Shown one piece after another: positions 20,055-50,698 of a DNA stretch of 64,000 nucleotides (position 1 is its first letter; each line of letters opens with the position of its first letter). This DNA comes from Mesostigma viride. Taxonomy: Eukaryota; Streptophyta; Mesostigmatophyceae; Mesostigmatales; Mesostigmataceae. The notes under the pieces were generated by a model. The model ran no database searches. It saw nothing but the letters and a program-made list of their open reading frames with translations, and was not told the origin of the DNA. The position numbers were made by a program, and so were the translations under genes. The stretch lies in the NCBI GenBank assembly GCA_009746045.1, contig RPFO01000034.1:1-64000 (forward strand), in the 5' to 3' direction.

Positions 20055-20673
20055 TTGTGAGAGAGTTGCCCTGAATTCCGCCATGGTTCTTGCAGGAATG
20101 TTGCCTTTATTAAGAATAAGGAACACCGACGTAAGTCACGTCACTTCCAAGACTGCACGCAGCACAGGCGACAGGGTCGCAGTGCCAAGAGAACGTGCAC
20201 GCAAGAACTAGCGTCCCGGTGCTACCAAGTCACACATATAGGTTTGCTAGGGACGCGTCCAAGTAATCAGCTGCACTGTCACAGCTGAACTGTCAATCAA
20301 TTGATTACACAGACTCTGGCACGCCTTTGGCGCGCAGATCTATCGATCAATTGTCCATACGGCTAGTCCTGTGGACCTATCCGTACACTACTCAGCATCA
20401 ATTGTCTCATAGGTCCTGGCGCGCTACAGCACGCCTACCTATCAATTGACCATCAAGTCCTGTACAAGTCCTGTCAACGTCCTGCGGACTATCAAAGTGA
20501 CACTTGTACATCCTGTGTCCGTACGCGCCCACAACGTGGCGCGCCGGGTACTGTCGGCACAGCCTAGGAAACGTCATAACTTTTACGTTCCTTAACCAAA
20601 TGAGGCGTTCAAGGTGCCGTTGGAAAGAGCGTAACAATCTCTATCCATCTAACGTAAATCCTTTACGTTAACT
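20055..20673 (-). repeat. LTR (3') of the Copia-type element
   Basis: Runs from TTGTGAGAGAGTTGCC to CTTTACGTTAACT. It matches 33876-34488 with two visible small deletions (TCGA in ATCGATC, and ACG near GCGCCCACA) and a single substitution, so the copy is fairly young. On the minus strand it is preceded by a purine-rich run (about 20675-20700) suitable as a polypurine tract. Termini are not a clear TG...CA. Confidence 0.8.
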
Positions 20674-20806
20674 CCAATCCCTTCTTTTCTTTAGGGATCA
20701 CATCCCCTGCCAGGGACCCTTGAAGTAGCTTGAAATGTCCTTCACTCCAGCTTGAAGCTTGAACAGATGTCTTTAATGGCCAATGCCATTCCCCCAGCCT
20801 TTTCTT

Positions 20807-22503: not shown

Positions 22504-23327
22504 GGAGCTGGAAAAGAAAACAGATCTGCCACAGGGAAAACCATTTCATGAGAAATTGAGAAAACCTATGGAAGTGGCATTACAGAGTACCACCAGATAT
22601 TAGAAACACACAAAATTAAATACATACAGGTTAATTCTATGAGGTCTTCTCCAGGAATTAATCCCATCACCTCGGTAGAGCCTCCAGTGCAATGACCTTC
22701 TGGCGGTGAGTTACATTAATCCCAGATACTAATCCCATAAAACCCAGTACATATTCCGAATATAAGTACAATAAATCCATGACAATTAAAATACCACTTG
22801 ACAAAGTAAGGCGTATTACAATAGTTTGCCTGTCATTCTCTCAACAGGGGTCTATTGGCGCCCGTCTTACGGCGCCCGTCTACTTGCCAGATGGTAAACT
22901 GCCACAGCAAACAAATGACAAAATGAAACATATAGGCAACAATTAAATCCTGCCCTGGGGAACTAGGGAAGTCTGAACAGGCAAACACCTGAACAGGCCA
23001 GCTTGTAGAAACATAATACCAGGGAATCGAACCCCGCCCTATAAACCCCAGTATGATGGTTCCCAGACCATTGTGAGAAGTATGTACAAATATACATTTC
23101 TTTTAAAATAGAATACATGGTCTGTAATGGACCTGTCAACCTTGTGTAGTCAACAGCATGAACCCCAGCCAAATCCTGGCTGTATCCTGAATAAAATCAG
23201 AGTGAGTGTACCATGGTCCATGAGCCTTAGTACAGACTAAAATACAGGTATTATGCCAGTCACAATGCTGACACTACGGTCACTACCACACAATCTGCTC
23301 TCCAATGCCCTATAACCAGGCACCAGC
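22504..23327 (-). other. 3' untranslated region of the Copia element
   Basis: No ORF. Contains GGCGCCCGTCTTACGGCGCCCGTCT at 22858-22882, a short motif that also occurs at the gag start (about 32939-32955). On the minus strand at about 23040-23019 there is a perfect Pol III B-box string GGTTCGATTCC, but no tRNA cloverleaf or matching A box could be built. Confidence 0.5.
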
Positions 23328-25727: not shown

Positions 25728-25760
25728 GTAACTGTCAGGATTCCAGACTGGTGGCAAGGC

Positions 25761-27468
25761 TTAACCCCTAAATGGTCTGGCTGCCGATTTTCCGCCTAAA
25801 ACTGAGTTACAGCCGACACGTCGGCCCCTTCTCGGGGGACCAAATGCCGCGAAAACTATTGAGAATTAGGAAACGTTTAGCTGAGAAGATCGAAAGTTTA
25901 TAATTTTCCTCACAGCATGGTACTAGGGTTTGCATACTTCTGACAAAGTTATAGAGGTGTTCTGGCCGGTCAAAGTACAAGGGGTCAGGGTACTTTTTCA
26001 CGTAGAACGTGCATTCCGGAAAACGACGACCTGGCCATGGCGGCTTGCGCACACGCATGGCATTTACGTTTTCGTTCGAATTTTCTGACCAAACTCAGGA
26101 AATTGATTTTATACGTCCTAAAGATGATACAGGCCAATTTTTGGTTCGCGGGAATGCCATTTGATAGGTGTCGGCAGCGTTCTTGCTGGAAAAAACTGCG
26201 ATCAGGCCGGACGATAGAAACGTTGACAGCAATAACTTTCCGGCGTATTTTAAGGGATATATCGGTTTCTTTGTACTTTTTATGGTGATTTGTAGTCGTA
26301 AACGTGCAAGGGGGGCCAGAAATCGTCGAATCTAGCGACCATGCTGCACAACTTTGGTGTGCCGAAATGCGCCATTTTGCGGCCACCGCCTGGGCAAAGG
26401 TAATGCCAGCCATGCCAGGTAAAGCTGAGTTATCGTTTTCTTGTCGATGTTTGACGTTTATATATACGTTCTAGCTTGTGTAGCACATTCTTTCTTCATT
26501 ATTCATGCTCTTTCTTGACCATGGCCTGGCCCCTTCCTAAAACACCATTCTTAGATGCTTCCCTCAGTCAGTTGACCTGCCATAGTGTGATGGTGATAAG
26601 TTTTAGAGGCTGTATGGGTTTGAATACCTCCATATATGTTTGTTATACATTTCCCACACACATATTGCATGAGTGTGAGGCAGTTGGCTGGTCTCTAAGG
26701 CATCATCAAGCATGTACCCGGTGAGTAGAAGCTTCCCATTGTCAGCATGTGCCACCAGGTGTGCTGGCCATCACCTGGCAAGCTATAGCAGCTTAGGCCT
26801 AGTTTATCCTTGCTAGGGCAAGCTGAAATAGGCTTAAAATCACTAGTTTGTTGGTGGCTGCCTCCTAGAATGCATGCCTTGCGTAGGGTATCCGTACCAC
26901 GTTACCTACGTGCATGGACAAGGTGGCACCTGCACATAGGTGCCATGTAAGGGCAGTGTGATGATGCAGTTATGTTTCCCCATCATTGTGGAAGGGAAAT
27001 GTATTGTGTGGCATGGTTGGGGGACATTTTTAGTAGGTATTAGTAGGTAGTATGCCCACCCCTACCCCCTTGGTTGCTTTTTACCAACGGTACCCCTATG
27101 GGCTGTACTGGGTGTAACTGCTGGTATACCCACCCAAATGATGAACCCAATGGCTCAAACTGTTCAGCAACTAATTGTTTATCATCCCTGAAGTGGTAGG
27201 TGCCTAGCTCTTACAACATAATTCAAAATGCACATTCTACCAAAAATGAAAACGCTCGTCTTGACCCCCCTGACTTTGACGGCAGTTATACATGGCCTAC
27301 CCTGCATATATGTAAGGTTGTGATATACCAACCCGAAGGGCAACTCATGGACATGCTTGGCCCCCAAGGACAGCCATTGGATATGGGTGGGTTGGATGGC
27401 ATCTGGTTTGCAAAATTGTGAAGTTACAGCCGATGCATCGGCAGTATTTCTGCCCATTTAGGGGTTAA
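25761..27468 (-). mobile_element. TTAA-flanked element (piggyBac-like), copy 2
   Basis: Same element as 20807-22503 in reverse orientation, with TTAA at 25761-25764 and 27465-27468. The host LTR reads GGCAAGGC-TTAA-AGATCAAATG in its uninterrupted sister copy (30043-30062), so the insertion site, the single target TTAA and its duplication can be read directly. The TATA-like box is at about 26455-26470 and the shared ORF at 26413-25985. Confidence 0.95.
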
Positions 27469-28013
27469 AGATCAAATGTATATTGCTTTACTGATTTAAT
27501 AATATTGACTTTGTATCTGCGACCACAACGGTGCTGCGACAAAGGAGCATCCGAGGCTAAATGGAAAGCACTTTGCAAGGGCAAAGGTGGCGGCTCAATA
27601 TTGGCCGTTGATGCACATCATTCACCACGTGATTCTAGTCTAAGACAGGTACTCTAACATGTATGTCTGTTTTCTTTCCCTGACTTGTAAAGAGACCAGA
27701 ATTAATAGCTCAACTTCAAGTGTCGCCAGACACTGCAGGTTATTACCCCACAGCGGTACACAGTATGTCTGACGCATAATTCAGTCCCACATTAATGCTG
27801 TCCACTGTGGGCCATAACTACACAAATGGTCATATCTTTTCAACCAGTTGTCAGAATGAGAAAATTCCACTTGTAAAGTTGATCAGCTCAACGAGCCTGA
27901 TCCAACCATGATGTCAAATGTAGCAGAAAGTAATCATATAAGTTCCGGTATACCCGAAGCTAGCACACTCAATAATAAAACTGTCAGGCATATTGGGGCA
28001 TATCCTGACACCC

Positions 28014-29192: not shown

Positions 29193-29993
29193 TTAGAAGC
29201 AGAAACCGGGGGGGAGGTCCGGGGCCTCCTGGGCGGGCGCCGGGGTGTCGGTGGTGTGGTGGACACCGGCGTTGCCACGATTGTTGCGCAGGTGAGGGTA
29301 CTTCCACCAGCAGGTCGCCTCCTGATGAGAGGGGCGACCGCAGTGGGTGCAGCTGGGCCGCTGGGCCCCGCCATTGTGACCGCCACGCCCCCTGCCACGG
29401 CCGGTGCCACGGCCACCGCGTCCAGAGTGGGGGGTATGATACACCCCGGTGGCCTCCTTGGAATCTTTGTCACCGTGCACCAGGTCCCATGCCTTAAGAA
29501 GGGCCGCCTTAGTTTCCTGTAGGGTGATACCGTCCCCGAGGTTTAATTGGGCGAGGGACGGGAGCAAATCCTCGGTCACGCCGGCGAGCAGATTCTCGGC
29601 CAGATCCTCGGGTGCCATTTTGGCGCCGGTGGCAATCAGGTCGTTATAAGTTAATTCCCCGTCGGTTATATATTGCCGCATTGTGACGCCGTGTTCCAGC
29701 TTCATTCGATTGAGCTTGCGGCGTAGTGCGCGCCGGTTGCTCATCTGCAGTTTGAGGTGCTCATATTCTTCACAGATACGGAGATATGCCACGCTGCCAG
29801 TTTTCTGAGTAACACTGTTTGCCACTTTGAGTGCCGGGCCGATGAGGCACTGGCAGAGGGCCGCAAAAAGAATCAAGTCGCGTTCCTCATTAACCTCAGT
29901 GCCAAGCAGGACAGGCAGCATCCCGAATGCTGTCACTACGGCCAGAAAAGGAATCTTCGTGTTATCCCACTTTACTGGGTCGAGGCCGTCGAA
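29193..29993 (-). CDS. Copia-type Gag with zinc knuckle
   Basis: The frame is open from just after the primer site (text FDGLDPVKWDNTKIPFLAVV, about 29984-29925) to a stop at 29193. No ATG was found upstream of FGMLPVLLG, so the start is uncertain (spliced leader, non-AUG start or a lost ATG). Helical capsid-like region, then RGGRGTGRGRGRGG and a CCHC knuckle CTHCGRPSHQEATC (residues 196-209 counted from 29936). Binds and packages element RNA in the known family role. It is the only protein this element encodes. Confidence 0.8.
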   Translation of the reverse strand, partial: FDGLDPVKWDNTKIPFLAVVTAFGMLPVLLGTEVNEERDLILFAALCQCLIGPALKVANSVTQKTGSVAYLRICEEYEHLKLQMSNRRALRRKLNRMKLEHGVTMRQYITDGELTYNDLIATGAKMAPEDLAENLLAGVTEDLLPSLAQLNLGDGITLQETKAALLKAWDLVHGDKDSKEATGVYHTPHSGRGGRGTGRGRGRGGHNGGAQRPSCTHCGRPSHQEATCWWKYPHLRNNRGNAGVHHTTDTPAPAQEAPDLPPGFCF

Positions 29994-30600
29994 CTGTGTA
30001 ATATTCTTGCCTCCGATACCATGTCAGGATTCCAGACTGGTGGCAAGGCTTAAAGATCAAATGTATATTGCTTTACTGATTTAATAATATTGACTTTGTA
30101 TCTGCGACCACAACGGTGCTGCGACAAAGGAGCATCCGAGGCTAAATGGAAAGCACTTTGCAAGGGCAAAGGTGGCGGCTCAATATTGGCCGTTGATGCA
30201 CATCATTCACCACGTGATTCTAGTCTAAGACAGGTACTCTAACATGTATGTCTGTTTTCTTTCCCTGACTTGTAAAGAGACCAGAATTAATAGCTCAACT
30301 TCAAGTGTCGCCAGACACTGCAGGTTATTACCCCACAGCGGTACACAGTATGTCTGACGCATAATTCAGTCCCACATTAATGCTGTCCACTGTGGGCCAT
30401 AACTACACAAATGGTCATATCTTTTCAACCAGTTGTCAGAATGAGAAAATTCCACTTGTAAAGTTGATCAGCTCAACGAGCCTGATCCAACCATGATGTC
30501 AAATGTAGCAGAAAGTAATCATATAAGTTCCGGTATACCCGAAGCTAGCACACTCAATAATAAAACTGTCAGGCATATTGGGGCATATCCTGACAGTAAC

Positions 30601-33849: not shown

Positions 33850-33875
33850 GGTAGCGAAAAGGCGAGTAATACGAG

Positions 33876-34488
33876 TTGTGAGAGAGTTGCCCTGAATTCC
33901 GCCATGGTTCTTGCAGGAATGTTGCCTTTATTAAGAATAAGGAACACCGACGTAAGTCACGTCACTTCCAAGACTGCACGCAGCACAGGCGACAGGGTCG
34001 CAGTGCCAAGAGAACGTGCACGCAAGAACTAGCGTCCCGGTGCTACCAAGTCACACATATAGGTTTGCTAGGGACGCGTCCAAGTAATCAGCTGCACTGT
34101 CACAGCTGAACTGTCAATCAATTGATTACACAGACTCTGGCACGCCTTTGGCGCGCAGATCTATCAATTGTCCATACCGCTAGTCCTGTGGACCTATCCG
34201 TACACTACTCAGCATCAATTGTCTCATAGGTCCTGGCGCGCTACAGCACGCCTACCTATCAATTGACCATCAAGTCCTGTACAAGTCCTGTCAACGTCCT
34301 GCGGACTATCAAAGTGACACTTGTACATCCTGTGTCCGTACGCGCCCACAGTGGCGCGCCGGGTACTGTCGGCACAGCCTAGGAAACGTCATAACTTTTA
34401 CGTTCCTTAACCAAATGAGGCGTTCAAGGTGCCGTTGGAAAGAGCGTAACAATCTCTATCCATCTAACGTAAATCCTTTACGTTAACT
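33876..34488 (-). repeat. LTR (5') of the Copia-type element
   Basis: Partner of 20055-20673; see there. The outer end abuts target duplicate GCAGGAG and the resumed LINE frame. The inner end is followed on the minus strand by CGTATTACTCGCC, which is not a recognised tRNA primer site. Confidence 0.8.
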
Positions 34489-35112: not shown

Positions 35113-35157
35113 AAGATGTTGTACATCAGTGGCCCTGCGGTCCACGAGACTCAGGGT

Positions 35158-35300
35158 GTCGCGTCTGCGTGCCACAATCTCCGGCGCCACCATGGCGGCT
35201 GGCCACTCAGCTTAATTTGGTAAAACCCAAATGAGCTGAGCTGATGTGCCTGCCTTAACTGCATGCCCTGTGGGGTGGGCGAGGACCTGTCCCATGATTC
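35158..35300 (-). repeat. B2 repeat, outer 3' terminus of the Ty3-type element
   Basis: 143 bp, GTCGCGTCTGCG to CCCATGATTC on the plus strand, matching 36440-36582. Holds a hairpin at 35206-35240 (CTCAGCT...AATTTGG, loop, CCAAAT...AGCTGAG). It abuts the AGGGT target copy at 35153-35157. Confidence 0.85.
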
Positions 35301-36436
35301 AAAGAAAGGAGGGCTCTCAGCCGAGGACAAGGAACTGTCCCTCGTGCCTGATAACCACCTTATTGCCTCCCCTGCTATAGAATAATGCTTTCAAAACACA
35401 TACTTTGCACAGTCTGATGATGAAGCCGCACATGCGGAGTTTATTGAGAAAGTTTATACAATTACAACACGTTGATAGTCTCAATATCGATGCACTCCAT
35501 GCTCACGAGCCCGCAGTTAGGCAGCGCTCCATGACATGCTACCGGCCTTGCTCCCAAGGAAAGGGAGAAACACGAAGGCCACTAACGAGAGACTCGAAGA
35601 GACTACACGCTGCGTGAGAGTCCTCTTCGACTATGAACCAAACCATTCGTCATGCCACACGCATGACACACGCCACACTTGTCAGTCCAGCCAGGAATGC
35701 CAAAACTATCTTGCTGCCTGAACCATGCGAATAGAAACCGCATTCCAGTTGCCGTCCTGGCTTTCTACCACACATGCCAACAAAAGCAGGAAGGCATCCC
35801 GACAAATCTAAATTGCTACCCTGTTGCCGATCTCATCTCCTAGAGGCTCCGGCATTTCTGTCCCTGGGAATGTCCGACATTGAGTCACGTCCAGCAAGGT
35901 CGAAGCATAATATCCTTCAGACAATCTGCACGCTCACACCTTGCGTGTGAGTGGCCCAGCAAACATTGCGTCTAATCGTTCCTTTCTAGAAGAAATCCCT
36001 TTTTAGGGCTGCCAGCGATTTCGCATTCATTCCAGCGATCTGGCTCCGCACCGCAAATTGTCCTTTTCCATTTTCTGTCCAGTCCTCATAACGTTGACCC
36101 GCTATTCTACACCACAAAGACACCTGGCCTGTCAATAGCCTCGGCGCTGTTGAAGTCCAGCAGTCCAGCTTCAGCTCCAGCTGTCCACTAACACGCGTAT
36201 GATCCTCTCGACGCTGCACACTTGTGCTGCCGTCCGCTCAAGTCAGTGCTGCGCGCCCAGCTGTGCCTGGCCCGGCGCGCGTGCACGTACACTTTCGTCC
36301 GCTCTTATGCTGCAAGTGCTAGTGTCCCCCCCGGTCACTAGCCTTTGTCGAAAATGCGTAGAAGACAAATTCCTTGCGCACGTCACCGGTCTTGTGCATA
36401 GTGGGCGCCCGGATGACATAGCGCGCGTCCGTGACA
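35301..36436 (-). repeat. A2 repeat (3' LTR-like)
   Basis: Plus-strand text from AAAGAAAGGAGGGCTCTC to GCGCGCGTCCGTGACA. Read on the minus strand it starts TGTCACGG. The other end (CTTTCTTT) is not CA. Differences from A1 include CATACTT/CACACTT, GTTTATAC/GTTAATAC, GCAGTCC/GCAGTAC and one base in a C-run. Short frames on it are not genes. Confidence 0.9.
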
Positions 36437-36439
36437 GCT

Positions 36440-36582
36440 GTCGCGTCTGCGTGCCACAATCTCCGGCGCCACCATGGCGGCTGGCCACTCAGCTTAATTT
36501 GGTAAAACCCAAATGAGCTGAGCTGATGTGCCTGCCTTAACTGCATGCCCTGTGGGGTGGGCGAGGACCTGTCCCATGATTC
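36440..36582 (-). repeat. B1 repeat, internal copy
   Basis: Matches 35158-35300 throughout. Lies 25 bp after the pol stop codon on the minus strand and is separated from A2 by only GCT (36437-36439). Contains the same hairpin at 36488-36522. Confidence 0.85.
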
Positions 36583-36607
36583 CCCCCCTCGCTGGCGACC
36601 GGCCCCA

Positions 36608-39600
36608 TCACGAAGACAGCGATCGTACCAAGACAAGGGCAGCGGTGACCGCAGTCAAGCTGCGGGAGGTAAACTGCGCAGCGGTGCACACTGGACAAAA
36701 CCAATCCCCCTCCGGAATGCTGGTGACCACGGGCTGCAAGCACTGCATGTGCCAACCACAGTTACACTGATCACACAATAACATGGACTCCGCCTGATCG
36801 ACCCGGTGACAAACCTGACACTGGGCGTCCTTGACTCGGCGAGATGTGTGCGGTTGGAGGTCGTGGACCAAATTGGGCAGTGAGCAGGGACTGAGATTGC
36901 TGAGGTTGTCTGTCGTACGGCTCCCGTCGGCGCCCTCCAAAATTGCCACTCCCGATGGTTTGATAGCCACAATGCGCAAAATGGTGGGCCCCGCCTCCAC
37001 ATCCAAAGTGTGCTTCAGCTGAGTGCGCAGGAAAACATACTGCCCTGGCCTAAACCGCAGCTGGCGAGCCATGTATGCGCCCCCCCGGCGCTGAGCGTAA
37101 CGCAGGGAGTCCCTGTGCTGAGCAATGAACAAGTTGTTCATCGCGATGGGCATGACCTTCTTAAAAGTCTCTGCCCTGGCCAGCACCTCAACCAAAAATT
37201 GCTGAGCGTTGTCGAAGGCCATGGGTTCGGGGTGCGCAACCTGTGCCTCCGTAGGCAAAAGAGGATTACGCCCGAACAGAAGGAAATACGGGGAGAAGGT
37301 AGCGAGAGACTCCTGGGGAGACATGCGATAACCCATGGCAATCCATGCCAACTCGCGATCCCACCTGGCCGACTCCGGCACCTGCAGGCTCCACTTGCGC
37401 AGCGCCTGCTTGACGGTCTGCACCAATCTCTCAGCCAAACCATTGGCCTGAGGATGCTCCCGAGAAGTGCGACGGTGATCAATAAGACATCCATCCAGCA
37501 ACTCCTGGAACTCACCCCTGAACTCACCACCCTGGTCCGTGACTACCTCCGCGGGAGCCCCAAACCTGGTGATGATGTCTGCAAAATGCTTCGCTGTGGT
37601 AGCGGCATGCTTGTCAGCAATGGGGATCAACTCAACCCATTTGCTAAAGCTCTCCACGCATACCATGACATAGAGGTTGCCGTCAGGGCTCTCCTGAAAC
37701 GGCCCGCACAGATCGACGTGCCAGCGATAAAACAAGCCCTTGATGGGAAGCGACATCAGCTCCTTGGCACCATGATCTGCGCTAAAGTTAGCCTTGGTTC
37801 GAGCACACGGGACACAGCTGGCCACTACCTGGGCCACTGTGTGTCGCATGTTATTCCACCAATAGCTGGTCCGTACGAGGCTGAGCGTGCGATTGCCACC
37901 CAAGTGACCATACCGCTCGTGGTACGCCTGCACTATAGCAACGCGCTTGTCAGGCGGTGGGACGACCACCCTACGCTTGCCCAACAGCTTGTACAAAACC
38001 CCATCTTCCCAACCATAGGTTGCAGCCCTGTGCTGCACCCTGTTCAACTCCGTCGCCTTCTGAGCAGGAGTCCAATCGACTGGAGTAGGAGTCAAGACAG
38101 CACCCTGCACTTGCTCCAAAACTCGACCATCTAGCCAGATATCAGCGGTGTAGCAATCAGCAAGAGAGCTACGCGCTAAGAGAGCCTGCACAGCGATCAG
38201 CTGCTGCAGAGAAGGATCAATGTCAAAGGACAGAGACCTACCCTCTTCCATAGCGCACACAGCTTTGGATGGCGTGAATGGCGACGGCCGCACCGGGTCG
38301 TCGCTGATGCCGAAGTCCGCCACAGAGTACTCGACACTGCGCCACCACGCCTCCTCCTCATCGTCGGCCGCATACCCAGCAGCGTTCACAAAGACCACAG
38401 AACCCGACGAGCCCTCGGCACCCATGGCCCGGGCTCCAGTGTGGTCAACAGTGGTAGGCATGGCGTATCGGGATAGCACATCGGCGTTGACATGGTCCTT
38501 GCCGGCCCGATGCACAATGGTCATGTGGTACTCCTGGATAATCATGGCCCATCGGGCGAGCTTACCCGTCAGGTTGGTGTTGGTCATTAGCCACTGAAGC
38601 GGCTGGTGGTCTGTCACCAGAGTAAACACGCGCCCAACTAAATACGGGCGAAAGTGCTTGATGGCCCACACCACAGCCAGTGCCTCCCCCTCATAGGAAG
38701 AATACCGGCTCTCCGCTGGGTTGTTGCTGCGACTAGCATAAGCAATAACGTGCTCGCGCCCATCACCATCCTTTTGCGCCAAGACCGCACCCAGTCCTAC
38801 CTTGGACCAGTCGGTATATAACACAAACGGCAAAGCATAGTCAGGGGCGCGCAGAATCGGGGCCGACGTGAGCTCCTGCTTGATTGTCTCGATGGCGCGT
38901 TGCTGTGCGGGACCCCACGCCCACACGCACCCCTTCTTGAGTAACTCGGTCAAGGGCTTCACCTTGCTGCTGAAGTTCTCAATGTAACCTCGGTAATAGC
39001 CAGCCAAACCCAAATACGCCCGCACCCCTGAGACATCCGTGGGTACGGCGGCCTGCACAATGGATTCGACCTTGGCGGCATCAGGCGTCCGGCCACCCGG
39101 CACAATCTGATGACCAAGGAATGAGAGGGTCCGCTGGGCGAACTTGCACTTCTCAGGGTGCAGCCGCATATTATGCTCCTCGAGAGCCAAGCGAACCTGC
39201 TCCAAGTGCGCCAGGTGCTCCTCAAATGTCGCGCTAAAGACGATTACATCATCAATGTAACAAGCGGCGAAAGGAAGACCTGCAAGCACTTTGTCCATAG
39301 CTCGTTGGAAAACAGCACTAGCGTTGCGGTGCCCAAAGGGCATGCGCACCCACTCATACAAATTGCCGCCCCCCCAGAATGCAAGCTTCCGCTGATCCTC
39401 CGGCGCAACTGCGATCTGATGAAAGCCGCTACGCAGGTCCAGCGAGGACACAAACTTCACATGAGGAGATATCTTATCCAGGACATCATCCACACGTGGC
39501 ATGGGGTAACGGTCCACGGGTGTGTGTGCATTCAGCAACCGCAGATCGGTGGCCATGCGCATACCCGTCCATGCCCCGGTGATAGCGTCCTTCTTGGGCG

Positions 39601-42600
39601 CAACGACAACGGCAGCGGCATAGCTGGAGGAAGATTGCCTGATGATACCGGCATCCTCTAACTCCTTGCATTGCTCGGCTACAAAATCCAACTCGGCCTG
39701 ACTCAGGCGATGCTGGCGTCGGAACAAAGGGGTGTCAGTGTCCAATGGAACACGCATGGTCCCACCATTGAAACACCCCAGTTCATCACTTGTGAAAGCG
39801 AAGGCCCCCCTTGCAGTGCCTAGCCACTTTAGCATGGCTGAGCGCTGCGCATCAGAAAGGTGTTCGCCAATAGCCCAGGGGTGCGTATCCGCGGGATCAC
39901 CCACAGCTACCGCATGTGCCTCAAGATGCGGCGCCCTAGCCGCATCGTCGTGGAACAAGGAAAAGGCTGCCACGCCTGGTGTGACACCCACCGCCGGAGC
40001 CTCGCGTGCCGCACGGTGTATTACCCGATGCAGCGTGGGCTCGCCGGCCAGCACGGTGCTGGTCAGCAGGGCGGTCATGAGAATGATAGTCCACACCTGT
40101 CGCAGACGCCACCCCCATGCTGATGAAGTCCCCGTCGCTGCAGGGCGCTTCAGTTTGGCTGCGCGCGCCTCAACCTGCTGAGGCGGATTGGCTGGGGACG
40201 CCCCCCCAGACTGGCGCACGGCAACCGATGCAAGCAGCACATACCCGACCTGCAACACCGACATAGCCTGGCCTATCAAAGACCAGCGCTCACTCTCGAG
40301 CACGCCCGGCAGCGCCGAGGCCCCGACATGAAAACCCATGCTGGCCTCACGAAATTCTGCGGGTGGCTGCACCAACAGACCGGTGGTAGTGTCCCAAACG
40401 AGACCCTTACCCCGATCACGGTATGCTGTCGACCCTTGGTAACTGACCAGGGTCGGCAGTGCACACATGGGGCTCCCGACCCGGTTGACGCGTGCATACG
40501 GTGGGCGATCCTCGCTATCCACCTTCTGCGTGACTAGGTGGGAAGGCAATGCTACCTCCGCAGACACACTCGGATGCTGCCTTGCTACGGCCCCCAAGAC
40601 CGCCTGCACATCGGTCGCACACGCCACGTTGGTCCAATAGGCACGCAAACGATGCGTGAGCCCACCCAGCCCTGCGTTGTCACACACGATGGGCTCCCCC
40701 AGGAGTGCCACGATTGTAGCCCAGTCCTCCCGCACCGCCTGATGTGGGCTGTCACCCGCCACAACGTTCTCAAACAGATACGCAGGCGGATGGGGCTGAC
40801 GCGACTGCAACAGTCCCACCACACGCAACAGTTCCCAGAACAGCGCGCTACGCGGATCGGCTAGCCCCCGCCCTTGCCCTGCCTGGCTCAGGCCCTGGCA
40901 CTCCCAACCCGCAATTACCAAGTCGATGGCATGATGCCTGCGCAACAACTGCTGCACCTGCACCTCACCGATGGCTCGGATATCTTGAGGACATTCCCCA
41001 AACGGGTCACGCCATGCTGATGGCGGAAACTGCGCGGGATACTCTCGCGACAACACGCCACAGTGACTGAAGTACACCTGACGCGCCTTGTGCGATGGCT
41101 CTACCGCGATGAGTTTACGGCACACGCCGCCTGCGGCCAAAAAGCCTGCAATGCCCCCTCCGATCCCCGCAAACAGTTCCAACACTACCGCACCCTTGGC
41201 AAAATCAGGGGCCTGCGGTAAGATTGCAGCAGAAAAATTACCTTGGGCCTCCGAGACACCCGGTTGCAGCAAAGTGAGGCCATGGCTGGCCATCTGAGGA
41301 ATGGTGATGACGGCTTCAGTTACCCGCTTGCGCATAGCCAGCTGCCGCGTGGACGTCACAGCATCCAGCGACCACTGCGTGCGCATCTTGGCAATGCTCG
41401 CCGTTGGCTGGGGCAGCACCGTCCGATGCTTGTCCCACGCCGATGAGCCCGCCGCCCGTACCTCCACCATGCTGACCTCCACCACGCCCGCAGCCGCGGA
41501 AGGGTTGAGGCGTGCAGCCCCGGCTGAAGAACTGAAGCATGAGACCGGCACGCTGGCCCGCTTCAGGCCAGCCCCATCCCAATCAGGGATGTAAGATGCC
41601 TCCTCCGCCCTATAGTCCACCTGAACCATGGCGCGAGCAAGGACATCCACCCCGAGTAGTGCGGAATATCCACACTTGTTGACCACCAGCGCATACGCGG
41701 ACACGGTGGTCATGCTAGAGGCGCGCAACGGATTGAAAATCACGTTGACTTTAACCGCCGTCATAGCGTACGGCTTACTAGCCGGACCCTGCCAACCTGA
41801 CACAGACACGGGGCTTTCCACTAAGCCACCGTTCTCGTAGGTCAGGTTCAGCATGGTGGCCAAGTCCGTGCTGATGACTAGCGGCTGAGCACCGCTATCA
41901 AGCTTGACTGCGCCAACCAACGGACATGTCACCATGTCGCTCCATACATCTCCACAGGCTCCAACTGCTTGGAACGCCATGGACGGCTCACCATTGGGGT
42001 ATGGAACCACCGTGGGAACCTGGGGGACTGCACTAGTGCGCTGCTGGCTACTTGTGCTGACCACTCCCGCTTGCACCACGGGCACTGCGGCTTCTACCGG
42101 CTGGCGCCCGTAGGTGACGGACTCAGAATTGCGCAAGGTGCGCACATCATGCCCATCTGCGAACAACTGGATCTCGGACACAACCGACCCCAGCCACTCA
42201 ACCCCCTTCTGCCCGAAGGTGTCGACCACCTGCCGTGCTGAAAACATGGGTACGTCCACAATGAACGGCATTGGGTACACAGGCGCCAATCGCCTACGCT
42301 GCTCCAGCCCAGCAGGGTTCGCATGCTCAAAAGCAGATTGCACCCCAGCCAGCGGCATGGAAAAGGACGCGGGCAACTGCCCGGCAGGCAACATGGGTGC
42401 CTGCTGAAAAGAAAGCGGGCTGCGTGCCTGCTTGCCTTTGGTAGCCTCCGCAGCGTTGATCTCGACGTCACCCGGCATGGGCGCCCAGAATGGGTCCTCC
42501 CGGTACACCGTCTCGAATTGGTTGGGGGGCGCCGTCGCCTCCTCACCATGCTTGATGGCAGCCACCTGGGCTTCCATCGAGTCGGTCTTGCCCGCCATCT

Positions 42601-42646
42601 CGGCGAAGTGGACCGTCTTGATGCCCGCGGCTGGACACTTGTTCAT
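36608..42646 (-). CDS. Pol polyprotein: PR, C5-methyltransferase, RT, RNase H, integrase, PHD finger
   Basis: 2012 codons. Retropepsin-like: LDSGAQP 249-255 and ALLGVDV 329-335. C5-cytosine methyltransferase ~485-810: motif I LELFAGIGGG, motif IV AGWECQGLSQAG with catalytic Cys583, motif VI ENV 626-628, motif VIII THRLRAYWTN 664-673, motifs IX-X near 767-797. A hydrophobic segment lies at ~850-868. RT: Asp1070 in SSLDLRSGFHQ and YIDD 1130-1133. RNase H: Asp1279, Asp1346. Integrase: His1576, His1581, Cys1611, Cys1614, then Asp1645, Asp1704, Glu1739, and a GPY/F-like module near 1886. PHD finger 1943-1987 (C4HC3, Trp1982). All key residues are present, so it may be active. The frame extends upstream through a zinc knuckle to ~42789. 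Confidence 0.95.
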   Translation of the reverse strand: MNKCPAAGIKTVHFAEMAGKTDSMEAQVAAIKHGEEATAPPNQFETVYREDPFWAPMPGDVEINAAEATKGKQARSPLSFQQAPMLPAGQLPASFSMPLAGVQSAFEHANPAGLEQRRRLAPVYPMPFIVDVPMFSARQVVDTFGQKGVEWLGSVVSEIQLFADGHDVRTLRNSESVTYGRQPVEAAVPVVQAGVVSTSSQQRTSAVPQVPTVVPYPNGEPSMAFQAVGACGDVWSDMVTCPLVGAVKLDSGAQPLVISTDLATMLNLTYENGGLVESPVSVSGWQGPASKPYAMTAVKVNVIFNPLRASSMTTVSAYALVVNKCGYSALLGVDVLARAMVQVDYRAEEASYIPDWDGAGLKRASVPVSCFSSSAGAARLNPSAAAGVVEVSMVEVRAAGSSAWDKHRTVLPQPTASIAKMRTQWSLDAVTSTRQLAMRKRVTEAVITIPQMASHGLTLLQPGVSEAQGNFSAAILPQAPDFAKGAVVLELFAGIGGGIAGFLAAGGVCRKLIAVEPSHKARQVYFSHCGVLSREYPAQFPPSAWRDPFGECPQDIRAIGEVQVQQLLRRHHAIDLVIAGWECQGLSQAGQGRGLADPRSALFWELLRVVGLLQSRQPHPPAYLFENVVAGDSPHQAVREDWATIVALLGEPIVCDNAGLGGLTHRLRAYWTNVACATDVQAVLGAVARQHPSVSAEVALPSHLVTQKVDSEDRPPYARVNRVGSPMCALPTLVSYQGSTAYRDRGKGLVWDTTTGLLVQPPAEFREASMGFHVGASALPGVLESERWSLIGQAMSVLQVGYVLLASVAVRQSGGASPANPPQQVEARAAKLKRPAATGTSSAWGWRLRQVWTIILMTALLTSTVLAGEPTLHRVIHRAAREAPAVGVTPGVAAFSLFHDDAARAPHLEAHAVAVGDPADTHPWAIGEHLSDAQRSAMLKWLGTARGAFAFTSDELGCFNGGTMRVPLDTDTPLFRRQHRLSQAELDFVAEQCKELEDAGIIRQSSSSYAAAVVVAPKKDAITGAWTGMRMATDLRLLNAHTPVDRYPMPRVDDVLDKISPHVKFVSSLDLRSGFHQIAVAPEDQRKLAFWGGGNLYEWVRMPFGHRNASAVFQRAMDKVLAGLPFAACYIDDVIVFSATFEEHLAHLEQVRLALEEHNMRLHPEKCKFAQRTLSFLGHQIVPGGRTPDAAKVESIVQAAVPTDVSGVRAYLGLAGYYRGYIENFSSKVKPLTELLKKGCVWAWGPAQQRAIETIKQELTSAPILRAPDYALPFVLYTDWSKVGLGAVLAQKDGDGREHVIAYASRSNNPAESRYSSYEGEALAVVWAIKHFRPYLVGRVFTLVTDHQPLQWLMTNTNLTGKLARWAMIIQEYHMTIVHRAGKDHVNADVLSRYAMPTTVDHTGARAMGAEGSSGSVVFVNAAGYAADDEEEAWWRSVEYSVADFGISDDPVRPSPFTPSKAVCAMEEGRSLSFDIDPSLQQLIAVQALLARSSLADCYTADIWLDGRVLEQVQGAVLTPTPVDWTPAQKATELNRVQHRAATYGWEDGVLYKLLGKRRVVVPPPDKRVAIVQAYHERYGHLGGNRTLSLVRTSYWWNNMRHTVAQVVASCVPCARTKANFSADHGAKELMSLPIKGLFYRWHVDLCGPFQESPDGNLYVMVCVESFSKWVELIPIADKHAATTAKHFADIITRFGAPAEVVTDQGGEFRGEFQELLDGCLIDHRRTSREHPQANGLAERLVQTVKQALRKWSLQVPESARWDRELAWIAMGYRMSPQESLATFSPYFLLFGRNPLLPTEAQVAHPEPMAFDNAQQFLVEVLARAETFKKVMPIAMNNLFIAQHRDSLRYAQRRGGAYMARQLRFRPGQYVFLRTQLKHTLDVEAGPTILRIVAIKPSGVAILEGADGSRTTDNLSNLSPCSLPNLVHDLQPHTSRRVKDAQCQVCHRVDQAESMLLCDQCNCGWHMQCLQPVVTSIPEGDWFCPVCTAAQFTSRSLTAVTAALVLVRSLSS

Positions 42647-44481
42647 CAGGTGCCACTTCGTGTCTGCCCCATGCGGCTTCGTGCAGCGGCTTGGACACTC
42701 GCGACTAAGGTGCCCATCCTTGTCGCAAAGGAAGCAGCCCGATTTGCGCGCATCCGTCCTAGTACCCGTCTGTGAGGACGTGCCCCCCCAGCTCGCGTCG
42801 GGGCGGCAGCGTCTTTGTTGCCGCCAGCGGCGTTACCCTGGGTTGCATCATGCGATGAGGCGTTGCGAGACCCCCCTTGGTTCCTGCTAGCACCGTGGCC
42901 GCCTTGCGGGCGCGCTTGTCTTGTGGCAGACGACTCACCCGACTTGGCCTTGGTCAGCGCGTCGACCTTGGCCTGCAGCTCGGCCACCACCGTGCTTACC
43001 GAGATCCGGCCTTGCGCGTGTCGTCGCATCATGGCCCTGACCTCAATGCACAGTGACCGCAATCGCCACGGCTGGCCGTTGGGCGGCGTGGGCAGCTCCA
43101 TCTCCTTGGAGCCTAGCGCTTGCAGCCATTTCTGACACGCCAGCTTTTCGGACCAGTCCTCCACTTCGCCGGCGAACTCCATGAGGCGCTCGTAAGATTG
43201 CTCCGGGGTTTCACCCTCGGCTATCTTGAAACTGCGCCACTCACGCTCTGCCTTGATGGTCTCCACCGGGTATTCCTGGCGAAGGAGGCCCCACAGTTCC
43301 TCGGCAGGGTCGACACCATACATGATGTTGTCATAGTCGGGCTGGCCACGCCCGTCGAAGCCGAACCACACGTCCGTGTGACGCGTGTACAGCGAGACCT
43401 CTCTCCACTGCTCCACCAGCCTAGCCACTCGCCTCAGCGTAAGGCCGTGAAAGAAAAAATGCATGTTGTTCATCACAAACTCATGCATTACAGCGCCTTG
43501 CGTAGTCATGTATTGCAGATCAATCCATGACTTGTACGCGTTGTAGGCCTGCGCCAGCGTGGCCAGATTGCCGGTTGTGGAGAACTTCTCGCGCATGTCC
43601 ACCCGTGGTAGGGTGGGCATCTTCGCGCCTTCCGGTATGAGGCGCACCCTTTGCGGGTACTGCACCCCATCGGCATCCTCCGGCGGTCGCTGAGCTGCGC
43701 GTCCCTGCGCCAGCGTGCTTGGTCGTGCTGCCTCCCGTACTCGGAAAGCCAGCGGCGTGGTTATGTCCTCCATGGGCGGAATGCGCCCGATTGGCACACT
43801 TGACCACCGTGCAGTCGACCCGCCGGTCAGCGCCCCACCGCCTCGCCCAAACGGAATTGAGGCCCCGCCTGGCAGCATGCGTCCTGGTGCACCCCTGTGT
43901 GGGTCCATCGCGCGCGCCAGCCCTGCCCCGTTCTCCTCGTGCAATCCGTCTCGCGCTTGATCGAAAGGCAGGCGCCTGGGCGCCAGCGTATACTCGCCCC
44001 GTGGCTGACCATCCGCCTCACCAAGCAAGTCGTGTTGGGTTAGCGACCCAGCCAAAACCCCCGGTTCCATCGAAGCCCTTCCCGCCGCATTACCTGAGGT
44101 TGGCGGCTGGTCCCGCTCCCTCGGCTCCGCGGCAACACCACTGGGGCCCGGCATCGATGCCTGCCCGTCCCATGGTGTGGACTGCAGATGACGACCCTCT
44201 ACGGCCACCAATCTGTCGGTCACTTCCCGCATCTGCAGCGCCAATTGCTGCTGCAACTGTTGCGACTGTTGCTGCATCTGCGCTTGCATCTGCGCGAACA
44301 GCGCCACCATACTCAGCGGCGCTTCTTGGTCGCGACTCTCACCCACTGCGGGTACGGCGGGAGGAATCCCGCCATTCGACCCCGGAGCGGACGTGTCGGC
44401 ATCTGCTCTATTTGCATCTGCCATGGCTCGAGTCTGCGCTCGCGTCAGTGGCATGCACCAGCTGACCGATGGGCAAAACAA
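42646..44481 (-). CDS. Ty3-type Gag
   Basis: 611 codons from 44481; a better start may be the Met at 44451 (MPLTRAQTRAMADAN). Gln-rich coiled-coil stretch (MQAQMQQQSQQLQQQLALQM), then a capsid-like region with WIDLQYMTTQGAVMHEFVMNN and LWGLLRQEYPVETIKAEREW, then a basic tail. The usual CCHC knuckle is not in this frame: CFLCDKDGHLSREC is read in the pol frame between 42789 and 42646. The two frames switch at a run of seven C (G on the coding strand) at 42783-42789, where slipping back one base joins Gag to Pol. Confidence 0.85.
   Translation of the reverse strand: MFCPSVSWCMPLTRAQTRAMADANRADADTSAPGSNGGIPPAVPAVGESRDQEAPLSMVALFAQMQAQMQQQSQQLQQQLALQMREVTDRLVAVEGRHLQSTPWDGQASMPGPSGVAAEPRERDQPPTSGNAAGRASMEPGVLAGSLTQHDLLGEADGQPRGEYTLAPRRLPFDQARDGLHEENGAGLARAMDPHRGAPGRMLPGGASIPFGRGGGALTGGSTARWSSVPIGRIPPMEDITTPLAFRVREAARPSTLAQGRAAQRPPEDADGVQYPQRVRLIPEGAKMPTLPRVDMREKFSTTGNLATLAQAYNAYKSWIDLQYMTTQGAVMHEFVMNNMHFFFHGLTLRRVARLVEQWREVSLYTRHTDVWFGFDGRGQPDYDNIMYGVDPAEELWGLLRQEYPVETIKAEREWRSFKIAEGETPEQSYERLMEFAGEVEDWSEKLACQKWLQALGSKEMELPTPPNGQPWRLRSLCIEVRAMMRRHAQGRISVSTVVAELQAKVDALTKAKSGESSATRQARPQGGHGASRNQGGSRNASSHDATQGNAAGGNKDAAAPTRAGGARPHRRVLGRMRANRAASFATRMGTLVASVQAAARSRMGQTRSGT
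42783..42789 (-). promoter_or_regulatory. Putative -1 frameshift site between gag and pol
   Basis: Coding-strand GCT GGG GGG GCA. Re-reading one G moves the ribosome from the gag frame into the frame that carries the zinc knuckle and then pol without a stop. It could equally be a one-base deletion or sequencing error in a homopolymer; both readings are open. Confidence 0.45.
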
Positions 44482-44750
44482 GAACCAACAAGCCTAGGTT
44501 TCGCTGAGAAGAAGCAACAACCAAAGGCTTTATAACAGGTGTCAAGGATAACGACTCGACTAGCCTGCCAGAAAAAGACAAGAGCCAGCAAATTCTGGCT
44601 AGTTCTATTTTCTTAAAATCTGTCTCAAGACACTTCCTTTACAAACTGTCAGCCAGGCCGTTCCCTGTACTGCTGATGGTTGCTAAACACTAAAGCCAAC
44701 GTCTTGGCTTCGAACAGAAGGAAGCAGACTACCGGGTAGTCTCTTCGAGT
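44482..44750 (-). promoter_or_regulatory. Leader between A1 and gag
   Basis: No ORF. Directly inside A1 on the minus strand lies ACTCGAAGAGACTACCCGGTAGTCT, whose AGACTACC/GGTAGTCT halves form a perfect stem. No clear tRNA-complementary primer site is seen, so priming may be unusual. Confidence 0.45.
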
Positions 44751-45887
44751 AAAGAAAGGAGGGCTCTCAGCCGAGGACAAGGAACTGTCCCTCGTGCCTG
44801 ATAACCACCTTATTGCCTCCCCTGCTATAGAATAATGCTTTCAAAACACACACTTTGCACAGTCTGATGATGAAGCCGCACATGCGGAGTTTATTGAGAA
44901 AGTTAATACAATTACAACACGTTGATAGTCTCAATATCGATGCACTCCATGCTCACGAGCCCGCAGTTAGGCAGCGCTCCATGACATGCTACCGGCCTTG
45001 CTCCCAAGGAAAGGGAGAAACACGAAGGCCACTAACGAGAGACTCGAAGAGACTACACGCTGCGTGAGAGTCCTCTTCGACTATGAACCAAACCATTCGT
45101 CATGCCACACGCATGACACACGCCACACTTGTCAGTCCAGCCAGGAATGCCAAAACTATCTTGCTGCCTGAACCATGCGAATAGAAACCGCATTCCAGTT
45201 GCCGTCCTGGCTTTCTACCACACATGCCAACAAAAGCAGGAAGGCATCCCGACAAATCTAAATTGCTACCCTGTTGCCGATCTCATCTCCTAGAGGCTCC
45301 GGCATTTCTGTCCCTGGGAATGTCCGACATTGAGTCACGTCCAGCAAGGTCGAAGCATAATATCCTTCAGACAATCTGCACGCTCACACCTTGCGTGTGA
45401 GTGGCCCAGCAAACATTGCGTCTAATCGTTCCTTTCTAGAAGAAATCCCTTTTTAGGGCTGCCAGCGATTTCGCATTCATTCCAGCGATCTGGCTCCGCA
45501 CCGCAAATTGTCCTTTTCCATTTTCTGTCCAGTCCTCATAACGTTGACCCGCTATTCTACACCACAAAGACACCTGGCCTGTCAATAGCCTCGGCGCTGT
45601 TGAAGTCCAGCAGTACAGCTTCAGCTCCAGCTGTCCACTAACACGCGTATGATCCTCTCGACGCTGCACACTTGTGCTGCCGTCCGCTCAAGTCAGTGCT
45701 GCGCGCCCAGCTGTGCCTGGCCCGGCGCGCGTGCACGTACACTTTCGTCCGCTCTTATGCTGCAAGTGCTAGTGTCCCCCCCCGGTCACTAGCCTTTGTC
45801 GAAAATGCGTAGAAGACAAATTCCTTGCGCACGTCACCGGTCTTGTGCATAGTGGGCGCCCGGATGACATAGCGCGCGTCCGTGACA
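44751..45887 (-). repeat. A1 repeat (5' LTR-like), outer 5' terminus
   Basis: Partner of 35301-36436. The outer end, TGTCACGG on the minus strand, abuts AGGGT at 45888-45892. It is expected to contain the promoter on the minus strand; no TATA box was confidently placed. Confidence 0.9.
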
Positions 45888-46129
45888 AGGGTGGTTTACC
45901 GCCAGGGTAATCAGCTTGACCCAAGTGTAGCCTGGCCATTGTATTCCCCATCGTCGGGCTCGTCCCGGATGGGGTTGATGGTACTTACGCAACAAGATAT
46001 CATAACCCCAATCTGCGGTGTACTCAAAGATACATCTGCTGGTTCTGATGTCCCCCTTGGTTAAGACCCATCCAAATTCAACCGGGTCCAGATGTAGTAA
46101 ATCGAGCCGTGTGTTGCCCACGTGTAGCC

Positions 46130-47345: not shown

Positions 47346-48498
47346 TCATGCGGTGGACGGCCCCCCAGCGCCCTGCCGGGTAAGGAGAACGCCTGCAAGT
47401 TTGCCCACGTGGTTGGTTTCATCATACAGGAACGAATGTTGTTCAGCCAAGCGTCCCTCGGGCGTGCATCCGATGGGACAATTGTGCAAAAGGTGGTGAT
47501 CCCCCGGCTTGACCCAGGTCACAGCCAGGTTGGGGAGGGCGGAGCGTAGGTTGTTGGTTTTGCCGATGTGCAGTCCCGTGGACTTGAGCACATTGCATCG
47601 TTGTTGTGTGGCAACAGAATAGGTAGTGATATTTTCCATGACAGCATGCACTTCAGGCAATGAGATACAAACATTTGTTGTGTCATCCACATAAGCCGTT
47701 TGGAATATACCTTTGCCGTTACCTGTCGGGAAGCCCCGAATGCGTGGATCGTTCTGGTGTAGCCAGTAGAGTCCTGCGTGGGCCAAGAGAAATAGAATAG
47801 GGGACATGCAATCTCCTTGTGGGAGCGATCGTGAACTAGCGCCGTTCGCTGACTTGTGTCCATCTATTAGTAAATACCATGCAAGTGATTTGATCATACC
47901 CATAATGACGGTCATGAGTTGTGGGCCAAATCCTAGTGCGGTTAGAATGTGTTCGAGGTATTCCCAGCACATACGGTCAAAGGCTTTTTCGAAATCCCAG
48001 AACAATAAGAAGCCCTCTATATCGTCGCGCCATGCTTTGTCCACAATGTCCATCCATGATGAGGGTGATGCTGTCGTTGATGTGAAGATTGGCCCTAAAG
48101 CCCACTTGCTCCGGACCAATGAGGAAGTCTAGGACGGTGTATAAGCGTCGTTGGATTATTTTACTGATGATTTTGTACGCTACCGTGAGGCCTCCGGAGA
48201 CGGATTGGGCGGTAGTTTTTCCATAGGGTCTTGTCTCCCTTTTTGTACAGTAAGATAAGCGCAGATTCAGCCCAACTGCCGCTTACCTTACCGTGCCGCC
48301 AAATTTCAATAATACATTCATAAAAGTCTATGTGTAGGAGGGACCAGAACGTTTTCCAGAATTCAATAGGCAGACCGTCGACCCCGGGGGCGCGACCGGT
48401 TTTGATGTGTTCCATAGCTGTGGTGGCCTCTTCCATGGAAGGGATTTGATCGAGTTCCTGCTGTTGAGAGCTGGTGTAAGACGACGGGGAATTGCATG
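47346..48498 (-). pseudogene. LINE ORF2 reverse transcriptase
   Basis: Starts QQQELDQIPSMEEATTAMEH then KTGRAPGVDGLPIEFWK and LLYKKGDKTLWKNYRPI. After a frameshift near 48170 it continues with LLFWDFEKAFDRMCWEYL (motif A), SLPQGDCMSPILFLL (motif B) and AYVDDTTNV (motif C, YVDD). Catalytic residues remain, but the shift and the large insertion upstream of the domain break ORF2. Confidence 0.85.
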
Positions 48499-49520: not shown

Positions 49521-49722
49521 GGCTAGTTTCCGGAAAATACGAACCCTGCCTGTGCTGCGTTTTATGATATTGCGCTAAATCTTGGGCGATGGCGGCCGCA
49601 AATTATATCATCGTGTTCGTCATCAAAAAGCGCGTCTACTGCAATTTACCCGACCAAATTTCATGCCCGGATGTAAAAGTTATGAGCATTCTCGGCATCC
49701 ATAGCTCGTCACACCGTAAACC

Positions 49723-49725
<3 letters not shown>

Positions 49726-49759
<34 letters not shown>

Positions 49760-50325
49760 GCTATGGATGGCATGGGCATGGGCGGTGGCATGGGCATGGG
49801 CGGTGGCATGGGCATGGGGCTGGGCATGGGCCGGGCTGGCATGGGCGGCGGTGGGATGGGCATGGACGGTGGCATGGGCGGTGGCATGGGTAGCGCTGGC
49901 ATGGGCATGGGCGGTGGCATGAGCGGTGGCATGGGCGGCGCTTGCATGGGCGGCACTGGCATGTAATTTGGGCATGGGCGGTGGCATGGGCATGGGCATG
50001 GGCATGGGCATGGTTGGTGGCATGGGCATGGGCATGGGCGGTGGCATGGGCATGGGCATGGGCGGTGGCATGGGCATGGGCATGGGCATGGCTGGCATGG
50101 GCGGTGGCATGGGCATGGGGCTGGGAATGGGCATGGCTGGCATGGGCGGCTGTGGGATGGGCATGGGGCTGGGCGGCGGTGGCATGGGCGGCGGCATGGG
50201 CATGGGCATGCATGGCTGGCATGGGCGGTGGTGGCATGGGCATGGGCGGCGGCATGGGCATGGCTGGCATGGCTGGCATGGGTGGTGGCATAGGCATGGG
50301 CATGGGCATAGGCGGAATGGGAGGC
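49726..50325. repeat. (GGGCAT)n hexamer array
   Basis: About 600 bp of GGGCAT/GGCGGT-type units. Both strands are open in all three frames (Met-Gly, His-Gly-Trp, Pro-Met, Ala-His repeats), which is a property of the repeat, so no CDS is called. A plus-strand frame from 49589 begins with non-repetitive MAAANYIIVFVIKKRVYCN before entering the array, so a Met/Gly-rich protein cannot be excluded. Confidence 0.9.
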
Positions 50326-50698
50326 ACAGCCGAGCCTAGCTTGAACCTTAATTGCCTTGTTGAGCTTCATTGCATGGGCATTCTTCGTTAGATTGTGACA
50401 TTGGTATTGTAACGACTAAAAGTAACGTAGTGGAGCTGCGGTCTTAATGAACTTTCATGATTTTTAGTGGAACTGACGTCTTAACGATTTATTATTATTA
50501 TGGTGCATGTCATGACTACAATTTGCATCGTTTTTCTGTGGAAACTACATGTCAAAGCTTCGTGCACAAGTGGCTAGAAACCATACCTGGCTAGGGTGAG
50601 GCAGCGTGGGGGGCAGGAGGGAGGGGGGGGGGGGGGGCGACACTTTACTTTGGGGAACACTTGCGGGGAGGTACGTGATATTATTCCATTGATTTCAC
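50326..50698. other. Unassigned part of the TIR element
   Basis: No ORF. Includes a G-run of about 16 bases at 50622-50637 and an imperfect repeat of TGGAGCTGCGGTCTTAATGAACTT / TGGAACTGACGTCTTAACGA near 50430-50490. Confidence 0.4.

What the first reader, a model, noticed from the sequence alone, without database searches (positions are those of the whole stretch)
36608..42646. A complete C5-cytosine DNA methyltransferase inside a Ty3 polyprotein
Seen: between the protease and RT, residues ~485-810 hold motif I (FAGIGG), motif IV with Cys583, ENV, the RLR of motif VIII and motifs IX-X in canonical order. Known: retrotransposon-borne DNMTs have been reported in a charophyte alga and in dinoflagellates, but they are rare. 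Motif IV reads GWECQG, not the usual PPCQ or SPCN, and motif VIII (HRLRAYWTN) is closer to Dnmt3-like forms. Inference: the element may methylate its own or other copies, or shield itself; an intact frame and near-identical repeats suggest recent activity.
Basis: partly seen in the sequence, partly recalled or inferred. Interest (0 to 1): 0.9.

Follow-up and report, generated by a model that had tools for sequence, protein, structure and literature searches.

The report
Retrotransposon with its own DNA methyltransferase
A young, intact retrotransposon carries a DNA-methylating enzyme domain and a histone-reading finger inside the protein it uses to copy itself; closely similar elements are already known from one green alga, so it is a new member of a rare known kind, with unusual ends that hint at how it inserts itself.

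The parts
44751..45887 (-). Repeat A1 (5' end of element, begins TGTCACGG)
   Evidence: 99.65% to A2
45042..45056 (-). 15-nt self-primer sequence in A1 (nt 832-846; inferred RNA 5' end)
   Evidence: exact reverse complement of the 15 nt after A1; 0 of 300 shuffles as long
44736..44750 (-). Primer-binding site directly after A1, complementary to the self-primer
42646..44454 (-). gag ORF (first in-frame ATG; mechanical TTG start at 44481)
   Evidence: no Pfam hit
42695..42736 (-). CCHC zinc knuckle CFLCDKDGHLSREC, in the pol frame upstream of the pol ATG, overlapping gag (-1 frame)
   Evidence: translation; pol frame open to 42832; found by eye, no HMM hit
36608..42646 (-). pol ORF, 2012 aa, intact
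41633..41905 (-). Aspartyl protease region (DSGA, LLGVDVL)
   Evidence: weak Pfam E 0.1, motifs
40202..41194 (-). Dnmt3-type C5-cytosine methyltransferase domain, aa about 485-815
40892..40909 (-). Motif IV GWECQG with catalytic Cys583; Glu582 in place of Pro
39104..39598 (-). Reverse transcriptase (YIDD)
   Evidence: Pfam RVT_1 1.6e-27; nearest solved: Ty3
38528..38917 (-). RNase H
   Evidence: Pfam
37451..37960 (-). Integrase H2C2 and DDE core
   Evidence: Pfam
36686..36820 (-). PHD finger C-terminal to integrase
   Evidence: Pfam 1e-8; BAZ2B 7.8e-16
36580..36590 (-). Polypurine tract GAGGGGGGGAA across the internal/B1 border (last 3 nt in B1), longest purine run of the element
36439..36582 (-). 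Repeat B1 (144 bp, ends GCGACA)
   Evidence: identical to B2
36437..36438 (-). GC dinucleotide between B1 and A2, making GACA-GC-TGTC
35301..36436 (-). Repeat A2
35157..35300 (-). Repeat B2 (3' end of element)
45888..45891 (-). Candidate target duplication CCCT (left; ACCCT if 5 bp)
   Evidence: chance 0.0045 for 4 bp, 0.0011 for 5 bp
35153..35156 (-). Candidate target duplication CCCT (right)

Best explanation
An intact, recently inserted Ty3/gypsy retrotransposon (35157-45887) of the KnitGypsy-Dnmt3 kind. Its Pol carries a Dnmt3-type methyltransferase domain and ends in a PHD chromatin reader. Shown by sequence: domains, repeat layout, self-primer, polypurine tract, termini. Inferred: the RNA starts about 830 nt into A, folds back to prime its own reverse transcription, and is copied into DNA with B-A repeats at both ends; this is circularised and cut by integrase at the internal GACA-GC-TGTC junction, giving A-coding-B-A-B in the genome. 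Inferred: the methyltransferase, packaged with RT and integrase, methylates cytosines (most likely CpG) of the new cDNA so that it is not treated as foreign or is held quiet after insertion, and the PHD finger steers integration to chromatin with unmodified H3K4.
Against: Glu582 replaces a Pro found in 47 of 47 compared enzymes, and the tested K. nitens Gypsy DNMT gave no activity in yeast, judged inconclusive by its authors. Model residues 220-277 have pLDDT under 50 and HhaI is tied with DNMT3A. CpG is not depleted (0.85 in the element, 0.73 in the flanks), so there is no footprint of methylation, though the copy is young. One copy was seen, so neither selection on the domain nor family-wide layout could be tested. 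gag and pol are in different frames. The two-repeat-circle model also predicts A-B-A-coding-B copies, which could not be looked for. The short target duplication alone could be chance (0.0045 for 4 bp).
Confidence: 0.6

Rival explanations
1. The methyltransferase is catalytically dead or altered and serves another purpose, for example as a DNA-binding or dimerising module, or as a decoy for host silencing. (The rivals listed are not all exclusive of one another.)
For: Pro-to-Glu next to the catalytic Cys, Tyr776 to Ala, and a gap where the others have a conserved Glu; no activity for the K. nitens enzyme in yeast.
Against: Cys583, Gln584, ENV, both Arg of motif VIII, motif I and a late Gly all kept; frame intact over 2012 codons. 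The Tyr and Glu departures lie in a poorly aligned part.
Confidence: 0.25
2. The domain was captured from a phage, giant-virus or bacterial Dnmt3-like enzyme rather than from a eukaryotic Dnmt3 gene.
For: Identity to viral-contig enzymes is up to 31%, above DNMT3A at 25% (NtDRM motifs I-V: 29% over 105 columns); PHROG_116 4e-18; tblastn hits in 299 phage records at E 0.01, none covering 80%.
Against: The element sits on a very long branch (7 changes per column) whose place is unsure, and its letter make-up is biased; Foldseek ranks DNMT3A/3B first; the set holds only four eukaryotic enzymes, so it is lopsided; the K. nitens kin are called Dnmt3-related in print, though in a more divergent clade.
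Confidence: 0.25
3. The domain protects the host against DNA viruses, as proposed in print for transposon-borne methylases.
For: Proposed by Morozov et al. (PMC6338049, passages).
Against: No sign of domestication: the element looks young and complete.
Confidence: 0.05
4. The A-B-A-B ends are an accident of this one copy (for example integration of a circular by-product), not the family's normal layout.
For: Only one copy could be read: no further Pol in the window, and the genome search did not complete.
Against: The same layout is described for KnitGypsy-Dnmt3 (figure legend).
Confidence: 0.12

Closest known systems
KnitGypsy-Dnmt3, Klebsormidium nitens (de Mendoza et al. 2018, PMC5890265; parts 1-4 of 7 and passages read)
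   Same: LTR Gypsy Pol with a Dnmt3-related, intronless DNMT in the Pol ORF; repeat structure 'the same as that of a DIRS retrotransposon' with Gypsy domains
   Different: No sequence of it was at hand, so identity could not be measured; a find in the main text gave 0 hits for PHD; the parts read speak of no self-primer or target duplication for it; the figure itself was not seen
SymbioDIRS-Dnmt3 and SymbioLINE-Dnmt of Symbiodinium (same paper)
   Same: Retrotransposons with a cytosine DNMT in or beside Pol; SymbioDIRS also A-coding-B-A-B
   Different: DIRS with tyrosine recombinase, or LINE; here a DDE integrase and Ty3 RT
Tf1/Sushi and Tcn1 chromoviruses (PMC6317226 and PMC2864245, passages)
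   Same: Self-priming at a site just after the 5' repeat that is derived from the repeat itself
   Different: PHD finger instead of chromodomain; split repeats; DNMT. Clade not tested by an RT tree
REM1 of Chlamydomonas (recalled; the paper was not found in the library)
   Same: Algal Ty3 element with a PHD finger (recalled)
   Different: As recalled, its PHD lies in a separate reverse-oriented ORF and it has no DNMT
Ectocarpus Gypsy families with chromodomain or Tudor domain (PMC12477816, passages)
   Same: Chromatin reader at the Pol C-terminus, acquired more than once
   Different: Other reader types; no C5-DNMT mentioned for them in the passages seen

Membership tests
C5-cytosine DNA methyltransferase | Motifs I, IV (Cys), VI (ENV), VIII (RxR), X in order | tested here: met
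C5-cytosine DNA methyltransferase | SAM-binding MTase fold | tested here: met
C5-cytosine DNA methyltransferase (active) | Pro before the catalytic Cys (strongly conserved; not what the family is filed by) | tested here: not met
   Glu582; Pro in 47 of 47 others. Hence filed as a domain of this family, not as a proven enzyme
C5-cytosine DNA methyltransferase (active) | Methylates DNA | not testable with these tools
   -
Dnmt3 family | Groups with DNMT3 in a tree | tested here: inconclusive
   On the Dnmt3/DRM/viral side of a 99/94 branch, but long branch, place within unresolved, bootstrap not settled
Dnmt3 family | Motif VIII without GxPQxR, of HRxRxxW type | tested here: met
Ty3/gypsy (by Pol) | Order PR-RT-RNaseH-IN with H2C2 and DDE core; RT nearest Ty3 | tested here: met
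   (protease weak, E 0.1)
Ty3/gypsy (usual ends) | Two simple LTRs bounding the element | tested here: not met
   A-coding-B-A-B, as also reported for KnitGypsy-Dnmt3
KnitGypsy-Dnmt3 kind | Gypsy Pol, Dnmt3-type DNMT in it, DIRS-like repeats | tested here: met
   description
KnitGypsy-Dnmt3 itself | Sequence kinship with the K. nitens copies | not tested
Chromovirus | Chromodomain after integrase | tested here: not met
   PHD finger there; no chromodomain among Pfam hits up to E 1
DIRS | Tyrosine recombinase instead of DDE integrase | tested here: not met
   rve core in Pol

The most novel reading that the evidence does not exclude
A Ty3 element whose replicated repeat (B-GC-A, from polypurine tract to self-primed binding site) is not the unit that integrates: its integrase opens a circular intermediate at an internal GACA-GC-TGTC site, so genomic copies are circular permutations of the cDNA. 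The element has also rebuilt, within one polyprotein, the DNMT3 pairing of a de novo methyltransferase and a reader of unmodified H3K4, to place and premark its own copies.
Probability: 0.3. Interest if true: 0.78.

Novelty: new member of a known kind. Interest (0 to 1): 0.5.

Why it matters
It adds an intact, young copy to the very few known Ty3 elements with a Dnmt3-type methyltransferase, so whether an element methylates its own DNA can be tested on it. Its exact boundaries (self-primer, polypurine tract, termini) make the replication and integration route of an A-coding-B-A-B Gypsy element directly testable. If the Glu next to the catalytic Cys proves family-wide, it is also a natural test of what that Pro is for.

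Tried and rejected
Assembly chimera of a host DNMT gene and a Ty3 element: rejected, one intact ORF with the DNMT between PR and RT and similar GC3 along it. tRNA primer: the first TGG lies 53 nt after A1; the self-primer fits instead. Protein database search: switched off. Tree: long branches, bootstrap not settled; not used to place the element inside Dnmt3. The VIA-align list (50 entries shown) did not show DRM2; that is not evidence against kinship.

Full report
What is there. On the minus strand, 35157-45887 is one element of about 10.7 kb: repeat A1 (45887-44751), gag ORF, pol ORF (42646-36608, 2012 aa), repeat B1 (36582-36439), GC, repeat A2 (36436-35301), repeat B2 (35300-35157). A1 and A2 differ by three substitutions and one one-base indel; B1 and B2 are identical. 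Low divergence and an open 2012-codon frame point to a recent insertion. No second copy of Pol lies in the window (tblastn, E 1e-3).

Catalytic state. Of 19 columns conserved in at least 95% of the 47 other rows, the element keeps 16, among them motif I Phe and Gly, Glu516, Asp575, Gly580, Cys583, Gln584, Ser587, ENV, both Arg of motif VIII and Gly792. It departs at Pro582 (Glu; Pro in 47 of 47), at Tyr776 (Ala) and at a Glu where the alignment has a gap. It lies next to the nucleophile, so activity cannot be assumed. One copy does not tell whether the change is the family's or this copy's.

Which family. Motif VIII lacks the GxPQxR run of HhaI (and its DNMT1 counterpart) and reads HRLRAYWTN, like DNMT3A HRARYFWGN. 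In the tree, HhaI, an Oenococcus phage enzyme, DNMT1 and DNMT2 fall on one side of a 99/94 branch and the other 44 rows, with the element, DNMT3A, DRM and the viral Dnmt3-like enzymes, on the other; where the element belongs inside that side is not settled, its branch is 7 changes per column long, and the bootstrap had not settled. Identity runs against a simple host-Dnmt3 reading: 31% to the best viral row, 29% to DRM motifs I-V (105 columns), 25% to DNMT3A, though the set holds only four eukaryotic enzymes.

The rest of Pol. RT-RNase H is nearest Ty3 among solved structures (217 bits). After the integrase comes a PHD finger whose best solved relatives are BAZ2B (7.8e-16), Lid, CHD4 and BAZ2A. 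From recalled knowledge, BAZ2 and KDM5 first PHD fingers read unmodified H3K4, and the cage Trp that H3K4me3 readers such as BPTF have two residues before the Zn-binding His is Gly here; this is inference from recalled sequences. DNMT3 enzymes carry a PHD-like ADD reader of unmodified H3K4 (recalled), so the element holds both functions, though presumably cleaved apart. A CCHC knuckle, seen by eye, ends 16 codons upstream of the pol ATG in the pol frame, inside the gag overlap; gag to pol is a -1 step with a run of G in the overlap. Whether this is programmed frameshifting or an indel of this copy is open.

Ends and replication. The 15 nt right after A1 are the exact reverse complement of A1 nt 832-846; the longest such match in 300 shuffles never reached 15 (mean 7.4), none of 5000 random pieces of the window outside the element holds the 15-mer, and in the minimum-energy fold of the 366-nt leader the bracket ends show 13 of these 15 nt closing onto the RNA 5' end. 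This is the arrangement of self-primed elements of the Tf1/Sushi and Tcn1 groups (PMC6317226 and PMC2864245, passages). The longest purine run of the element, GAGGGGGGGAA, straddles the internal/B1 border. Classical replication would thus make DNA with the repeat B-GC-A at both ends. Yet the genomic copy begins with A (TGTCACGG) and ends with B (GCGACA), has TG...CA termini and a CCCT (or ACCCT) duplication (chance 0.0045 and 0.0011), and carries the ends joined as GACA-GC-TGTC at B1/A2. The simplest reading is that a circular form is opened by integrase at that junction. The objection is that a two-repeat circle could also be opened in the other repeat, giving A-B-A-coding-B, which I could not look for.

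Comparison with what is known. De Mendoza et al. 2018 (PMC5890265; parts 1-4 of 7 read, and passages) describe KnitGypsy-Dnmt3: Dnmt3-related DNMTs, in a clade more divergent than the host gene, in the Pol ORF of an LTR Gypsy element with repeats laid out as in DIRS elements, under purifying selection (Ka/Ks under 0.2), with copies silent and carrying CHH and CHG methylation, and without activity in a yeast test that the authors call inconclusive. The three structural traits recur here. I therefore file this as a new member of that kind and cannot exclude that it is that very family, since no sequence could be compared and the host is unknown. Morozov et al. (PMC6338049, passages) cite the Ty3 and DIRS cases. 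Searches of the held library for PHD finger with integrase and gypsy (2 papers listed, none opened), split direct repeats with gypsy and DIRS (20 of 104 listed, none opened) and self-priming with circles (one listed, 2 opened for passages) showed no title that joins these features to a DNMT element; that is a weak test of absence.

Likely function. Most likely the enzyme methylates the element's own cDNA; de Mendoza et al. discuss avoidance of foreign-DNA recognition, protection from deamination, or self-restraint. CpG observed/expected is 0.85 in the element and 0.73 in the flanks, so no deamination footprint is seen, which for a young copy argues neither way.

Noticed in passing
window 20052-20673 and 33873-34488: Near-identical 0.6-kb direct repeats (98.9%) flank weak copia-like pieces (RVT_2, rve and zinc knuckle, each below Pfam's cut-off) on the - strand, probably one copia element broken up by later insertions.
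   Followed up: partly
window 27462-28010 and 30047-30595: A second pair of 0.55-kb direct repeats (99.8%) flanks a copia-type gag ORF (29193-29936), perhaps a gag-only element nested in the first.
   Followed up: partly
window 20806-22504, 25760-27469, 59412-61131: Three copies (93-94%) of a 1.7-kb repeat in both orientations, with no family assigned.
   Followed up: no
window 42646-42832: The pol frame is open upstream of its ATG through a CCHC knuckle inside the gag overlap; gag to pol is a -1 step near a run of G.
   Followed up: partly
window 40043-40096: Hydrophobic stretch VWTIILMTALLTSTVLAG in Pol (aa 851-868) between the methyltransferase and RT, like a membrane segment; unexplained (seen in the translation).
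   Followed up: no
window 47346-48119: Reverse transcriptase ORF, - strand (RVT_1 2.8e-10), probably of a LINE.
   Followed up: no
window 49700-50333: Long GGCATG-type simple repeat array.
   Followed up: no
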